Shown here: positions 58,819 through 64,000 of the stretch, piece by piece | Layout: every line of letters begins with the position of its first letter | Position numbering within the stretch: position 1 is the stretch's first letter | Assembly: GCF_004217545.1 (NCBI RefSeq) | Contig: NZ_SHKY01000001.1 | Location: 2,046,001 to 2,110,000 of the forward strand | Length of the DNA stretch: 64,000 nucleotides | Reading direction: 5' to 3' | From: Krasilnikovia cinnamomea | Lineage (GTDB): Bacteria; Actinomycetota; Actinomycetes; Mycobacteriales; Micromonosporaceae | Made by a program: the position numbers and the translations under genes | Notes under the pieces: generated by a model | Database searches by the model: none | What the model was told of the DNA's origin: nothing | The model's input: only the letters and a program-made list of their open reading frames with translations

Positions 58819-58901
58819 AATCCGAAACTTTCACTACGCCGGTGAAGTCGGATCGTGTCCGTACGCATTCCGGATAGCACAACGCCGGTTGTGGCGTGAC
58901 C

Positions 58902-59651
58902 ATGTGGGTTATGGCGTCGATCAGGTGCATGGTCGAGCAGGTCGGCATCCGGCTGCTCGTACACATGTCCGGTGAGCTATCCATGGCCAGCGCCCCGCGC
59001 GTGCGGGCCGAGCTGATGCGAGCCCTGGTCAGACAGCCGGACGCGGTGGTGGTGGATCTGGCCGACCTGGTGGTGCGCGAGCCGACGGCGGTGTCGGTGT
59101 TCGCGGCGGTCGCCCGGCAGGCCGCGATGTGGCCCGGCACTCCGCTGCTGGTGTGCACCGAGGACGACGAGGCGGTGCCGCTGCTCACCCAGGACGGATA
59201 CGGCCGGCTGCCGGTGTTCGCCTCGGTCGAGCAGGCCCTGTCGGCGCCCGCCCCACGCCGGATGAACCTGGTGTGCGACACGTTGCTGCCGGTGACCAGC
59301 TCCGCCGGTCATGCGCGCCAGTTGGCCACCGAGGTCTGCGACCGGTGGGAACTGCCCCACCTGGCCGGCCCGGCCTGCCTGATCGCCAGCGAACTGGCCA
59401 TCAACGCGGCCGTCCACGCCGGCACGCTGGCCGACATCCGCTTCGCGGTCGGCCGCCGCTACCTGATGATCAGCGTACGGGACGGGTCCACCGCCGAGCC
59501 GCGCCTCGGGTGGGCACCGCCGACCGATCCCGGTGCCGGCCGGGGACTGCTGATGGTGGACGCGACCGCGTACCGGTGGGGATGTCTCCCGATCGAGGGA
59601 GGCAAGGTGGTGTGGGCCAGTCTGCGAACCCGGGAAGCCCCTACGCCCTGA
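58902..59651 (+). CDS. STAS domain-HATPase fusion protein
   Basis: This protein has about 249 residues. The N-terminal half (VEQVGIRLLVHMSGELSMAS; VVVDLADLVVREPTAVSVFA) is a STAS domain as in anti-anti-sigma factors. The C-terminal half is an HATPase_c domain of SpoIIAB/RsbW type with the N-box ASELAINAAVHAG and G-box AGRGLLMVDATAYRWG. The phosphorylatable Ser/Thr of real antagonists is not apparent in VREPTAV. It is probably part of a partner-switching sigma-factor control module. The start is among ATG 58902, 58911 or 58929; 58902 is taken. Confidence 0.75.
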   Translation: MWVMASIRCMVEQVGIRLLVHMSGELSMASAPRVRAELMRALVRQPDAVVVDLADLVVREPTAVSVFAAVARQAAMWPGTPLLVCTEDDEAVPLLTQDGYGRLPVFASVEQALSAPAPRRMNLVCDTLLPVTSSAGHARQLATEVCDRWELPHLAGPACLIASELAINAAVHAGTLADIRFAVGRRYLMISVRDGSTAEPRLGWAPPTDPGAGRGLLMVDATAYRWGCLPIEGGKVVWASLRTREAPTP

Positions 59652-59826
59652 CCTGCGGATCCGTCCATCTTGGTCGACGCGCTCGGCCGTCGGCGGGTCC
59701 TGTGCCGGACGCAAGGGGCACAATGCCCTATTTACACGCGTGATGATCGCGGGCAAGGTCGGTAGAGACCCCAACGCTGGGGCCGACCCCGGCCCACCCC
59801 TGCCCCACCCATCCTCTGGGGGACTC

Positions 59827-60720
59827 ATGAGGCGCGACCAGCTACCGTTCCTGCTGGCCAATCCCCGCCGCAACCACGCGGCGGCGTGGGCATCCAGGAC
59901 GCCCGACCAGTCGGTCACCGTCGTCGGCGACTTCGACACCACACTCACCGAGGTCGGGCTGCACGGCCGCTGGGATCCCCACCTGAAGGCCAAAGCCGCC
60001 CACATGCTGCGTTCCTGCCTCGTCGGCCAGCCCGCCGGAGTCATCGCCGACCTGCACGACCTTTCCGACCCGGCCGGGGAGAGCACTCCTCTGTGGTGCG
60101 CCGCCCGTACCTGGGGCGCGCACACCCCGTCCCCGGTGCCGGTCGTGGTGTGCCTGCCCACCGCCGCTCCCCTGGCCGCGATCATCACCTGTCGCGCCGC
60201 CCAATGGAACGTGCCCGTCTACCCGTCGCTGCCCGAGGCCCGCGCCGCCCTGAAATGCCACACGCTCCGGGCCCAGCGGATGACCCTGCACCTGGAACCC
60301 GAGGTCGACATCCTTCCCCTGGTCGCGCAGACCATCGGCGACGCCTGCGCCGCCTGGGACCTGATGCCCCTGCACCGCGCGGCCAGCGCCGTGCTCACCG
60401 AACTCGTCAGCAACGCCATCGAGCACGCCGGGACGCGCATCGACGTCGCCGTCACCCGCCGCCCGTCCGGGTTACACCTGGCCGTCCACGACCGCGACCC
60501 CCGGCTGCCGCACCTGCCCGGCGCCGCGCCCGGCGGCTCCGGCGACCCCGCCCGACACGGCGACGGGCTCCGCCTCGTCCACACCTCCGCCACCGCCTGG
60601 GGCGCCCTGCCCACCCGTACGGGAAAGATCGTGTGGGCCGTCCTCACCACCAAGGGCACCAGCGAGCGCAGCCTCCGCCCCTCCGCGATCCCCGGTACGA
60701 CCGGCCCGCGCCGCAGATAG
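59827..60720 (+). CDS. STAS-like domain-HATPase protein, second copy
   Basis: This 297-residue protein has the same layout as its neighbour: an N-terminal STAS-like half (VTVVGDFDTTLTEVGLHGRW; VIADLHDLSDPAGESTPLW), then HATPase N-box LTELVSNAIEHAGT and G-box HGDGLRLVHTSATAWG. The C terminus is Arg/Pro-rich. ATG 59827 is supported by TGGGGGACTC. Two such fusions in tandem could bind different sigma factors or each other. It is convergent with the 2TM gene of the KAP operon, 7 bp away. Confidence 0.75.
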   Translation: MRRDQLPFLLANPRRNHAAAWASRTPDQSVTVVGDFDTTLTEVGLHGRWDPHLKAKAAHMLRSCLVGQPAGVIADLHDLSDPAGESTPLWCAARTWGAHTPSPVPVVVCLPTAAPLAAIITCRAAQWNVPVYPSLPEARAALKCHTLRAQRMTLHLEPEVDILPLVAQTIGDACAAWDLMPLHRAASAVLTELVSNAIEHAGTRIDVAVTRRPSGLHLAVHDRDPRLPHLPGAAPGGSGDPARHGDGLRLVHTSATAWGALPTRTGKIVWAVLTTKGTSERSLRPSAIPGTTGPRRR

Positions 60721-60727
60721 CCCCCGC

Positions 60728-61378
60728 CTATCCGCGCGCGCGCCAGCCGAAGCCGCGCCCGTCGTCCCGGAGGCCCGCGCCCTCGATAATCACGAGCAAG
60801 CCATGAAATACCTGATCCTCGAACTGCCGCAGGGAGTGCCTGAGATCTTCAACGGCCTTGTCCGAGCCGATGTCAATTGAATCCGTGACGAACTCGCCGC
60901 CGTCCGGGAATTTGATGTGGTGTCTGAGTCTGTCGCCAGTTCGCTCCAGGTCCCACTTGACGGATGCGTCGTAGTGGTACATCCGAATCGATTCATGTTC
61001 GGCTGCAGGGCGTTGCTGGGCGAAGCCAGCGTGCATGATTCTGGCGCTGGCCGTGGTCAAGGATGTCTCAATCAACTCATCGCGAGACACCAGGTCTTCA
61101 TTCAACTTCGATAATGCCCGGAGCGCGCTTCGCGCCTGGAGCTGCGCATCAGCAAGTGTGGTCGGCTTGGAAAGCGCATCGATCCGCTTGCCCAGCCGCT
61201 GCTCCGCTACCCAGATATAGCCGAAGAGGAATACGGTTGTCCCAAGATTCACGATGACGCTCTGCAGGTAGTCCCAGCGAATCAGTGCTCCACACAGAGT
61301 GAGCGCAACTCCACCAACACCGAACAGAGAGATCCGCGTCCAATCGATCCGGTCCGGGTCACCAGCATCTCGATTCAT
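60728..61378 (-). CDS. Two-TM protein coupled to the KAP NTPase
   Basis: This 216-residue protein has transmembrane helices at about 15-33 and 38-57 (LFGVGGVALTLCGALIRW; SVIVNLGTTVFLFGYIWV), a coiled region (about 58-105, SALRALSKLNEDLVSRDELI) and a soluble C-terminal domain with many charged residues (YHYDASVKWDLERTGDRLRH). No family is recognised. ATG 61378 overlaps the stop of the KAP NTPase (ATGA), so the two are made together. The codon use is less G+C-biased than in most of the window. Confidence 0.75.
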   Translation of the reverse strand: MNRDAGDPDRIDWTRISLFGVGGVALTLCGALIRWDYLQSVIVNLGTTVFLFGYIWVAEQRLGKRIDALSKPTTLADAQLQARSALRALSKLNEDLVSRDELIETSLTTASARIMHAGFAQQRPAAEHESIRMYHYDASVKWDLERTGDRLRHHIKFPDGGEFVTDSIDIGSDKAVEDLRHSLRQFEDQVFHGLLVIIEGAGLRDDGRGFGWRARG

Positions 61379-63900
61379 TGCGGACCCGGCCCGATCAGCT
61401 CCAGCGCCTTGCTGGTGTACTGCGGGTATGACTCGTCCCAACTGAGGTTGTCCCACCACTGCCCGGTCGGATCGAGCAGGTCGACTGGCAAGGCCTCCGA
61501 CTCGATAGGAATCTTGGGCAGCTCCTGGCCGAGCAGCGCGCCGGCGGCCGCCTTTCCGTATCCACGGTCGTTCAGATTGAGAGCCAGGGTGCGGCGAAGC
61601 CAGTTGTTCGCCGCCAGGACCGCATAGACATCAAGATAGATGGCTAGCGCAGCATTCTTGTACCCCAGCCTTCCCAGGACGTACGCTATATCCTTTTCCG
61701 CATTTGCGGGCTCACCAAACCTCGCCATGGTGCCGGTACGCAGAAGATAGAGCAACAGCCGCGCGGCATCCGTCTCGGTCTCCAGATTCTCTCCCCACTG
61801 AAACAGGGTGTCGGCCAACAGTTTCAGCGTGCGGAAGCGCTCGGCATCGGTCCCACACGCGGAAAAGACTGTTTGGCATGTCTTATGGAGGGCGTCGAGA
61901 TTCATCAGCCACCGAAGGTGCTTCTTCTTGGTGACTCCGAGGAGGCGTCCGAGATCCGACGGGTTCGGGTCACGTGTCAGCGCGATCCGCAGGGTCTCGA
62001 AATCGGAGGCGATATCAGAAAGCCCATCCTGCAGGGCAAGCCGAACCCGGAGGGCCAACGTCCTCGCGCGGAACTCCTGCTGCCGATCAGGTAGTGCCAG
62101 GGCTCGCTCGACCGCTTCCCCCGCTTCCTTCAGGTAGCTGGTCCGTTCACTCACCAAGATGCATTGCACGAAGTTGAGATTCAGGTTCTCCCGATCCGGG
62201 CTGGCGTGAATCGCCAAACGGTGAAGGTCGATCGCCAGATCGACGTCATCTAACCGCTCGGCGATTAGCGCGGCGTTACCGACCGTGCCGGAAACCCCGG
62301 AAAGATCATGGATTCCTCGAGCGATCTGCAGGACGTCTCGTGTTTTTGCGAGCGCCTCGGAAGGGTCGGATTCCTCCTCCTGCCGGGCAAGCATGTAGCT
62401 CATGATCAGACGATTCTGCGGGTCATGCGGGAGGTTGCCCGCGTCGACGTCCCGGTCACTGACGGGAGTCCGCTGATCGACCGGCTCCAGGTCCCTGGCG
62501 TCCAGGGTGGGCACATCCGTGGACCTGGTCTCCCCGGCGCTTCCTGATTCGCTACCGAGCTTGTCGGCGTCCGCCTGCTGCGCTCTCGGCGGTTCCCAGG
62601 CCGGTTCTGCCGCCAGGTAGATGGCGACCGCCGGGTCGTCCAACGGATTCAGGATCAGGCCCTCGGCATCTGCCAGATGTTCGAATGGCTGCCGGAGGCT
62701 CTCCCCTTCCATGCCCCACAACGGAGTAAGCTTGCGCCCAATGGTGCGCAATGTCGTAACCCTCGACGCGCTCACCTCGTCAAGCGTTTCAGCCGGCCAG
62801 ATCATGCGCCACCAGAAATCCGGCCAGAACGCTTTGAGGATCCACCGCTTGACTAGTTCCGGCGTCAACTCGACTTGCGGCTGCGGGCGAAATTCGGCCA
62901 GAAACGTATTCAACCTGTACTTCACCGCCCGTGGCGTCGTCCTCCCGTCCGCCGAGTGCAGCACCGGAGCGAACACCGAATCGAGTGGGTGATCCATCGG
63001 CTCCAGTTCAAGCAAACGCTGAAGTTCGCCGATCCGCTGGCGGTCGACGCTGGAAACCGCGGTCTCGAGGAGCTGGCTCAAGAATGCCGAGATTTCGCGC
63101 GAGTTCGTCAACATGTCCGGGACCTCGAAACCCAGGTGGACGTACTTCTCGAGCGCCTCCGCCGGGCTTCGCGGCCCAAGCGGGAAGGTACTCTGCTGGA
63201 GAGACTCCAAGAGATGCGCCCGATTTGCTGCCAGGACGAAGTAGATACCCGCACCCCGCGCGCTGACCCAGTAGTTTGTGGCCACGAGGAGTTGGACCGT
63301 GAATTCCGCGGAACACCGGTCGAGGTCGTCGATGAATATGACATGAATTGGCCGGCCCTCGTCGTTGTCGCGGCCGCGACCAATCATCTCGCGCAGCCAA
63401 TGTTCAAGCATTGGCGGTGCGCCCTCATACCGCGCAAGGGCATCGAGAAACTTGATCGAACTTTGCAGGTCCCACTGGGCTCCGTTGTTCGCCAACAGGC
63501 TACCGGCATCTGCCGGCCGTAGCTCCGAAAGCAGATCGGTGGCCCTGGTCAGAACGTCCGGACTGCTAAGCAGAATCTGCAGTGCCAGACTGGCCCGAAC
63601 GTTGTTGTGCTGTTCCCACAAAGGCGCATCGAATTCAGAAATGAAGACGCTCACGCCCGCCTGCTCCGCCGCTTCCCTGACCAGATCTTCCACGAGCCGC
63701 AATGCGGAAGACTTCCCAGCACCCCACTTCCCATACAGCCCGAAGATCATCGGCGACGGGCGCGGTGCGCGACTCGCCGTTACGATGTGCTCGGCGATGC
63801 TTCTGAGATTGTGCACGAAATCGGGTCTGGTACTGAACAGGACGTCATCTTCAGGCTCGACTGGTCCGGATTCAACGAAATGACCGAATTGGACTGCCAT
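61375..63900 (-). CDS. KAP-type P-loop NTPase with helical C terminus
   Basis: This 841-residue protein has Walker A GLYGKWGAGKSS (54-65) and Walker B VIFIDDLDRC (187-196), with the Asp-rich ending of KAP ATPases. The sensor-like NRAHLLESLQQ region and the winged-helix-like module follow. Residues 480-840 are helical repeats (IHDLSGVSGTVGNAALIAER, DDVDLAIDLHRLAIHASPDR), probably TPR-like. The usual KAP pair of transmembrane helices inserted between Walker A and B is absent here, and a separate 2TM protein follows in the same operon. KAP NTPases occur in phage-exclusion and defence loci. The ribosome-binding site is GGGAGGATGC. Confidence 0.85.
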   Translation of the reverse strand: MAVQFGHFVESGPVEPEDDVLFSTRPDFVHNLRSIAEHIVTASRAPRPSPMIFGLYGKWGAGKSSALRLVEDLVREAAEQAGVSVFISEFDAPLWEQHNNVRASLALQILLSSPDVLTRATDLLSELRPADAGSLLANNGAQWDLQSSIKFLDALARYEGAPPMLEHWLREMIGRGRDNDEGRPIHVIFIDDLDRCSAEFTVQLLVATNYWVSARGAGIYFVLAANRAHLLESLQQSTFPLGPRSPAEALEKYVHLGFEVPDMLTNSREISAFLSQLLETAVSSVDRQRIGELQRLLELEPMDHPLDSVFAPVLHSADGRTTPRAVKYRLNTFLAEFRPQPQVELTPELVKRWILKAFWPDFWWRMIWPAETLDEVSASRVTTLRTIGRKLTPLWGMEGESLRQPFEHLADAEGLILNPLDDPAVAIYLAAEPAWEPPRAQQADADKLGSESGSAGETRSTDVPTLDARDLEPVDQRTPVSDRDVDAGNLPHDPQNRLIMSYMLARQEEESDPSEALAKTRDVLQIARGIHDLSGVSGTVGNAALIAERLDDVDLAIDLHRLAIHASPDRENLNLNFVQCILVSERTSYLKEAGEAVERALALPDRQQEFRARTLALRVRLALQDGLSDIASDFETLRIALTRDPNPSDLGRLLGVTKKKHLRWLMNLDALHKTCQTVFSACGTDAERFRTLKLLADTLFQWGENLETETDAARLLLYLLRTGTMARFGEPANAEKDIAYVLGRLGYKNAALAIYLDVYAVLAANNWLRRTLALNLNDRGYGKAAAGALLGQELPKIPIESEALPVDLLDPTGQWWDNLSWDESYPQYTSKALELIGPGPQ

Positions 63901-64000
63901 GCATCCTCCCGGAACGTACCGTCCGGCACTACACGCTTACAGAGATTACCTGTCTTGTACCGGACGGCACGTGCGCATTCGTCGAACGATGTGGACAGAC
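63901..64000 (-). promoter_or_regulatory. Promoter region of the KAP operon with paired repeats
   Basis: GTACCGTCCGGCAC (63916-63929) and GTACCGGACGGCAC (63957-63970) differ at two positions and lie 41 bp apart, about four helical turns. Each is partly palindromic. A TAATCT -10-like hexamer (minus strand, 63948-63943) lies between them, so a repressor bound to both would cover the promoter. A -35 is not certain. Confidence 0.55.

What the first reader, a model, noticed from the sequence alone, without database searches (positions are those of the whole stretch)
60728..64000. Two-gene KAP NTPase/2TM operon with operator-like repeats: candidate defence system
A KAP-type P-loop NTPase (Walker A and B visible, Asp-rich B motif) is translationally coupled (ATGA overlap) to a two-TM protein with a coiled region. 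KAP NTPases known from phage exclusion normally carry two transmembrane helices inserted between Walker A and B. Here that insertion is missing and the membrane part appears as a separate protein, so the pair may be a split version. Base composition is less G+C-biased than the flanks, suggesting transfer, and the promoter has two near-identical 14-bp repeats flanking a TAATCT. The known part is the KAP family link to phage exclusion. That this pair is defensive is inference.
Basis: partly seen in the sequence, partly recalled or inferred. Interest (0 to 1): 0.8.

Follow-up and report, generated by a model that had tools for sequence, protein, structure and literature searches.

The report
Rare two-gene KAP NTPase–membrane protein cassette
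Two overlapping bacterial genes, one for a switch-like ATPase with a protein-binding tail and one for a small two-helix membrane protein, occur together as a rare accessory pair in distantly related actinobacteria and could be an uncharacterised anti-virus system, although nothing yet shows that they defend.

Summary
Window 61375-63900(-) encodes an 841-aa KAP-family P-loop NTPase (Pfam KAP 73.9 bits), overlapping by ATGA with a 216-aa two-TM protein at 60728-61378(-). The same pair, with the same overlap, was found in Micromonospora yasonensis (68%/50% identity) and a Frankia MAG (37%/27%). The 16 flanking ORFs tested match nothing at the other two loci. It is not core: 0 of 59 other same-genus genomes, 1 of 160 in the Micromonospora genus, 1 of 8 in the Frankia genus. 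The Micromonospora copy lies between two transposase fragments.

New here: the KAP protein's C-terminal half is predicted as a TPR-like solenoid, suggesting a STAND-like sensor/switch. The "split KAP" idea is unsupported: KAPs without the TM insertion are common (11 of 22 sampled, 2 more borderline), and the partner's profile does not match TM-bearing KAPs. Defence is plausible but unproven: no convincing defence gene among 10 neighbouring ORFs tested.

Best reading: a horizontally moving TPR-KAP switch with a coupled membrane effector or partner, a new variant of known KAP systems.

The parts
61375..63900 (-). KAP-family P-loop NTPase with TPR-like C-terminal half, 841 aa
62902..63798 (-). 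KAP NTPase domain (residues 35-333)
   Evidence: Pfam PF07693 73.9 bits; same place in whole-genome search
63709..63732 (-). Walker A GKWGAGKS (residues 57-64)
   Evidence: translation; alignment
63316..63342 (-). Walker B VIFIDDLDR (residues 187-195), no TM insertion before it
   Evidence: translation; hydropathy
61531..62421 (-). TPR-like helical solenoid (residues about 494-790)
   Evidence: AlphaFold2 model, ten-residue blocks here 59-90, mostly 70-90; Foldseek best matches are TPR proteins, E 2.2e-5, low TM-scores; Pfam TPR model only far below its cut-off
61375..61378 (-). ATGA start/stop overlap of the two genes
   Evidence: sequence; same overlap in the two homologous pairs (23, 38)
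60728..61378 (-). two-TM partner protein, 216 aa
61205..61333 (-). TM hairpin (TM1 residues 16-34, TM2 40-58)
   Evidence: hydropathy; conservation
60779..61087 (-). soluble C-terminal alpha/beta domain of the partner (residues about 98-200)
   Evidence: AlphaFold2, blocks from residue 101 on 72-87; no Foldseek match at E 0.001
63916..63929 (.). 14-bp repeat copy 1 upstream of the KAP gene
   Evidence: modest against shuffles
63957..63970 (.). 14-bp repeat copy 2
63943..63948 (-). TAATCT, possible -10 hexamer between the repeats
   Evidence: sequence; its role is inference

Best explanation
A rare two-gene cassette that spreads horizontally among actinobacteria. The first gene makes a cytosolic KAP P-loop NTPase whose C-terminal TPR-like solenoid is the likely ligand-binding part, so the protein is built like a STAND-type sensor/switch: NTPase switch plus superstructure-forming repeats. 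The second, translationally coupled gene makes a two-helix membrane hairpin with a probably cytosolic alpha/beta domain, the likely membrane output. Most likely mechanism: an invader cue binds the TPR part, ATP-dependent assembly of the KAP protein engages the 2TM partner, and membrane permeabilisation or arrest stops the infection. Shown: gene anatomy, overlap, conservation of the pair, accessory distribution, transposase fragments around one copy, constraint on the KAP coding sequence. Predicted: TPR-like fold. Inferred: topology, interaction, trigger, membrane output, defensive role.
For: Pair present in 3 of 3 genomes with a full-length KAP of this family, each time with the 4-bp ATGA overlap. 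Homology is confined to the pair: none of 16 other ORFs around the own locus matches the other two loci at E 1e-3. Patchy distribution: 0 of 59 other same-genus genomes, 2 of 394 in a class sample, one being the own genome, 1 of 160 in the Micromonospora genus, 1 of 8 in the Frankia genus. Micromonospora copy lies between an IS110-like fragment and an IS4/5 transposase fragment. G+C lower than flanks in 2 of 3 copies. KAP pN 0.196 against pS 0.732, dN/dS about 0.08, rough because synonymous sites are near saturation. TPR-like solenoid. Partner's hairpin region more conserved than its rest: 18 of 50 against 26 of 166 invariant positions, Fisher p 0.004, three sequences only and interval chosen after seeing the alignment. 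KAP NTPases in defence: QatA (PMC12424860, passages), Tmn (PMC11846954, passages), KAP in place of STAND NTPases in proposed immunity operons (PMC8195603, passage). Weak match of the KAP to a phage family of unknown function, phrog_8614, 31.3 bits.
Against: No convincing defence gene among 10 neighbouring ORFs (weak capH HTH match only). The Frankia copy has its contig's G+C (74.3% against 74.6%) and sits among transport and metabolic genes. No member found in viral contigs, phages or plasmids beyond distant KAP domains in 4 plasmid records. Model mean pLDDT only 56.5 and NTPase part poor; Foldseek TM-scores low (target-normalised 0.43 for the best); Pfam's only TPR match is 12.6 bits against 42. 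No interaction, phage or membrane data. Only three family members, so conservation statistics are thin.
Confidence: 0.45

Rival explanations
1. The 2TM protein is only a membrane anchor or regulator; the KAP-TPR ATPase is itself the active part (for example binding DNA or a phage protein at the membrane), as in TM-bearing KAPs of the Tmn kind.
For: Tmn is described as a KAP NTPase with two TM domains (PMC11846954, passage). QatA multimerises and binds DNA (PMC12424860, passage). Hairpin with cationic flanks fits a cytosolic C-terminal domain.
Against: The hairpin region is more conserved than the rest and holds invariant polar residues (N44, T47, T48), unusual for a bare anchor (three sequences). 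No profile link to TM-bearing KAP domains.
Confidence: 0.25
2. An accessory but non-defence pair: a stress, envelope or signalling module that moves between genomes.
For: No convincing defence neighbour at the own locus; Pfam neighbours at the others include a phosphate transporter, amidohydrolases, MFS transporter and a sulfotransferase.
Against: Very patchy distribution, transposase fragments around one copy and the KAP-TPR architecture fit conflict systems better than a housekeeping role; this weighing is inference.
Confidence: 0.25
3. Split KAP: the pair arose when the inserted TM hairpin of a canonical KAP became a separate gene.
For: KAP lacks the insertion and is coupled to a 2TM protein.
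Against: KAP domains without the insertion are common: 11 of 22 none, 2 borderline, 9 clear. Profile comparisons give probability 0.2%. The partner has some 150 further residues. The family's sister group is unresolved, so the tree neither supports nor excludes it.
Confidence: 0.05

Closest known systems
QatA of the qatABCD anti-phage system
   Same: KAP NTPase with a C-terminal extension; best PADLOC and NCBIfam match (42 and 46.5 bits).
   Different: Far below the NCBIfam QatA cut-off of 600; coupled to a 2TM gene instead of qatB; TPR-like C-terminus predicted. Four of 25 survey loci (two of them identical in sequence) have an MGT-starting downstream gene as QatB has.
Tmn, KAP NTPase with two TM domains (PMC11846954, passages seen)
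   Same: KAP NTPase plus two TM helices in total.
   Different: Described there as a KAP NTPase characterised by two TM domains; here NTPase and TM part are two genes and the 2TM protein has its own soluble domain. Not compared by sequence here.
PifA and the PADLOC candidate PDC-S20
   Same: Weak PADLOC matches, 23.2 bits over residues 33-80 and up to 27 bits.
   Different: Only short stretches of the NTPase domain match.
SLATT-type 2TM effectors of conflict systems (PMC7159879, passage seen)
   Same: Works like: small 2TM protein encoded with a regulated NTPase system.
   Different: No Pfam family matched the partner at E up to 1.
STAND NTPases with superstructure-forming repeats
   Same: NTPase followed by a helical-repeat part.
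   Different: P-loop domain is KAP; NPHP3_N (19.1 against 24.8) and nSTAND5 (12.9 against 34) stay below their cut-offs.

Membership tests
KAP P-loop NTPase | Pfam PF07693 over its cut-off across most of the domain | tested here: met
   73.9 bits against 20, profile 4-286 of 293
KAP P-loop NTPase | Walker A and Asp-rich Walker B | tested here: met
   GKWGAGKS and IFIDDLDR in the window protein; D191, D192, D194, R195 invariant in three
TM-inserted KAP (Tmn type) | two TM helices between Walker A and B | tested here: not met
   no segment of hydropathy 1.6 or more in the NTPase domains of the three; hydropathy only, no dedicated TM predictor
qatABCD | QatA over NCBIfam cut-off | tested here: not met
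   46.5 bits against 600
qatABCD | adjacent qatB, qatC (QueC-like), qatD | tested here: not met
   gene downstream is the 2TM protein; nearest others are GNAT, XRE, STAS/HATPase types; no Qat match among 10 ORFs
SLATT 2TM effectors | match to a SLATT Pfam model | tested here: inconclusive
   0 Pfam families at E up to 1 for the partner; that Pfam holds SLATT models is recalled
STAND NTPase (NLR-like) | STAND-type NTPase domain over cut-off | tested here: not met
   only matches below cut-off
Anti-phage defence system | reduces phage infection | not testable with these tools
   needs plaque assays
Anti-phage defence system | location among other defence genes (common, not universal) | tested here: not met
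   only a weak capH HTH match among 10 ORFs of the own locus; other two loci looked at by Pfam only
Anti-phage defence system | patchy, horizontally moving distribution | tested here: met

The most novel reading that the evidence does not exclude
A previously undescribed two-component immune system: a TPR-KAP ATPase acts as a STAND-like invader sensor that opens or assembles a dedicated two-helix membrane effector carrying a new soluble alpha/beta domain, a KAP counterpart of sensor-NTPase/pore pairs.
Probability: 0.3. Interest if true: 0.65.

Novelty: new variant of a known kind. Interest (0 to 1): 0.42.

Why it matters
How KAP NTPases act in phage exclusion is still open: the Tmn mechanism is called unexplored in PMC11846954 (passage), and QatA proved dispensable against phage lambda-vir in PMC12424860 (passage). 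A minimal two-gene unit in which NTPase/sensor and membrane part are separate proteins would let the ATPase switch and the membrane output be tested apart, by deleting or swapping either gene.

Tried and rejected
Core-gene reading: rejected by the relatives searches. Empty site: both flanking genes were searched in 100 genomes, own included. GNAT matched in 43 of 100; 29 non-own loci were fetched and in them none of the other 17 own-locus queries matched within about 1.5 kb at E 1e-8. All 29 loci brought by the HATPase query also match the neighbouring STAS/HATPase query (in the one stretch whose coordinates I saw, at the same place, so a cross-match) and one of them (L093) also the aldo/keto reductase query; none matched KAP, 2TM or GNAT. 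Of six wider stretches one (L132) has besides GNAT a 26% match to the aldo/keto reductase query about 3 kb away; the others show nothing shared beyond the gene that brought them and that cross-match. So a clean empty site could not be shown. For Micromonospora the right flank matches another genome from L008:8133 on, but the left flank (to 4700) does not match that stretch, again no clean empty site.

Streptomyces plasmid KAP (H1) looked like a relative; it lies in a 994-aa ORF with a different N-terminal region and no 2TM ORF at its 3' end, so it was dropped. Of five genome-contig hits three (L010-L012) match only part of the KAP domain and were not counted as family members. Partner relatives L065-L068 (E 1.4e-5 to 9.3e-4): only L066 looks like a real 2TM gene and it has no KAP in the 3.2 kb fetched. 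Partner fold: Foldseek no match at E 0.001; VIA-align best Z 8.2 over 88 residues to a chain of a Mediator-initiation complex, then 7.6 and less to unrelated proteins, judged a common arrangement. PDB by sequence: nothing convincing for either protein. Operator regulon: 10 places without mismatch (two of them the pair itself) and 179 with up to one, control 55, in the own genome, so the motif is not specific; not pursued. Rfam: nothing in L008 or L002. Viral scans: none. IS110-like fragment: no Pfam match, so it rests alone. Literature searches listed no paper whose title or shown passages describe this pair; no paper was read whole, and Aravind et al. 2004 (the KAP paper) is not held, so its content is recalled.

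Limits: the genome search scored only the best few candidates per genome (for example 2, 6, 9), and the genome-contig scan used two short patterns, so counts of presence are lower bounds. One search read gapped copies of the Micromonospora KAP and of the three partners; TM positions cited are.
Full report
What is there. The window end holds two genes on the minus strand. The first (61375-63900) encodes an 841-aa protein with a KAP P-loop NTPase domain. The second (60728-61378, start corrected from the mechanical GTG ORF) encodes a 216-aa protein with two TM helices. They overlap by ATGA. The window is cut 100 bp upstream of the KAP start, so 35 kb of the own genome, 30 kb of it beyond the window, was fetched.

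Family. A single-protein search found 2 of 394 class genomes with a match, the own genome and G247. A scan of 84,980 species genomes with a two-sequence alignment found 5 loci, of which 2 are full-length relatives: Micromonospora yasonensis (68% over residues 1-837) and a Frankia sp. MAG whose contig has the same length as that of G247 (15845 bases). Both have the 2TM gene next, again by ATGA overlap. Identities to the window proteins are 68% and 37% (KAP) and 50% and 27% (partner). The three KAPs form one group with 100/100 support in a 25-row tree; its nearest neighbours are unresolved.

Accessory and mobile. 0 of 99 relatives, 59 of them same-genus, have the KAP at E 1e-10. 1 of 160 genomes of the Micromonospora genus and 1 of 8 of the genus of G247 have it. 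None of 16 other ORFs around the own locus matches the other two loci; only KAP and 2TM do, and the DNA match of own to Micromonospora spans 2140-4914 of L002 (KAP and the start of the 2TM gene) and nothing else. In Micromonospora the 2TM stop (L008:7897) is 8 bp from a stretch of about 194 bp repeated at 88.5-92.8% identity elsewhere in the genus (five matches of 192-194 bp and one of 134 bp in seven stretches examined). It encodes part of an IS4/5 transposase (Pfam DUF4096, 67.3 bits). Upstream lies a fragment (L008:3754-4044) with no Pfam match but 61% identity to a plasmid protein annotated IS110 family transposase and 59% to another annotated transposase. Similarity to another genome of the genus resumes at L008:8133, but that genome's stretch does not match the left flank. 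G+C of the pair is 60.9% (own; rest of window 72.4%), 58.3% (Micromonospora; rest 69.0%) and 74.3% (Frankia; rest 74.6%). KAP codons show pN 0.196 and pS 0.732 between own and Micromonospora, near saturation, so dN/dS 0.08 is rough; for the partner pN is 0.310 with synonymous sites saturated.

Architecture. AlphaFold2 with only three sequences gives a poor NTPase part but a confident helical C-terminal half from about residue 494 (mean pLDDT overall 56.5; ten-residue blocks there 59-90, mostly 70-90). Foldseek's best matches are TPR superhelices (best E 2.2e-5; 36 matches at E up to 0.001, mostly TPR or other helical-repeat proteins by their titles), with low TM-scores for the whole model; Pfam's only TPR match is far below its cut-off. 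The partner model (mean 64.9) shows the hairpin (blocks about 51-61), a helix, then an alpha/beta domain with blocks of 72-87; no known fold was recognised. Cationic residues lie before TM1 and after TM2 with none in the loop, so both ends are probably cytosolic (positive-inside rule, recalled).

Is it a split KAP? The premise is that KAPs carry two TMs in the NTPase domain. Of 296 class genomes, own included, 25 have a KAP match. Among 22 domains examined (three partial matches, from G152, G217 and G345 contig 777, left out), 9 have clear TM segments behind Walker A (7 with two, 2 with one; in two of the nine my pattern found no Walker B), 2 have one borderline segment and 11 have none (two of the 11 are identical rows, one has no recognisable Walker A). 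Four of 25 survey loci have an MGT-starting gene downstream, as QatB has (QatB motif from PMC12424860, passages). The 2TM profile does not match TM-bearing KAP domains (probability 0.2% in both comparisons). So lack of the insertion is ordinary and the split origin is unsupported, while a split in function (switch and membrane part in two chains) remains possible.

Is it defence? For: KAP NTPases occur in QatABCD and Tmn and replace STAND NTPases in proposed immunity operons (passages only); architecture and patchy mobility fit; the KAP weakly matches a phage family of unknown function. Against: only a weak capH match among 10 neighbouring ORFs, no defence family recognised by Pfam around the other copies, no full-length copy in the phage, plasmid or viral-contig collections searched. 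I put the defence mechanism at 0.45.

Promoter repeats. Present as described, but a 12-of-14 match arises in 25 (direct) and 41 (inverted) of 300 shuffles, both together in 2, and the same repeat or spacing is not at the other two loci, though Frankia has other repeat pairs there. A 41-bp spacing, about four helical turns, would suit an operator pair; this is inference.

Verdict. A real, small, conserved and apparently mobile two-gene unit with a combination of parts not reported as far as the searches show; a new variant within the KAP world, with function to be tested.

Noticed in passing
L066 1480-2457 (+): A 325-aa actinobacterial protein with a similar N-terminal hairpin motif (ANLGTTVLL...MER) to the partner but a different C-terminus and no KAP beside it; the hairpin may be a wider module.
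   Followed up: partly
L008 7906-8098 and 3754-4044: Two transposase fragments (IS4/5-like, IS110-like) bracket the Micromonospora copy.
   Followed up: yes
L135 4288-7269 (+): Streptomyces plasmid ORF of 994 aa with a KAP-like stretch behind a different N-terminal region that looks like a Clp N domain (recalled, not tested).
   Followed up: no
window 58896-60720 (+): STAS/HATPase-type regulators convergent to the pair; relatives of the nearer one occur in 62 of 100 genomes searched, own included.
   Followed up: no
L002 6051-6938 (-): XRE-HTH/DUF5753 regulator with a weak capH match (21.1 bits), probably just the HTH.
   Followed up: no
window 61375-63900 (-): The KAP protein weakly matches phrog_8614 (31.3 bits, unknown function), so a KAP-like family exists among phage proteins.
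   Followed up: no
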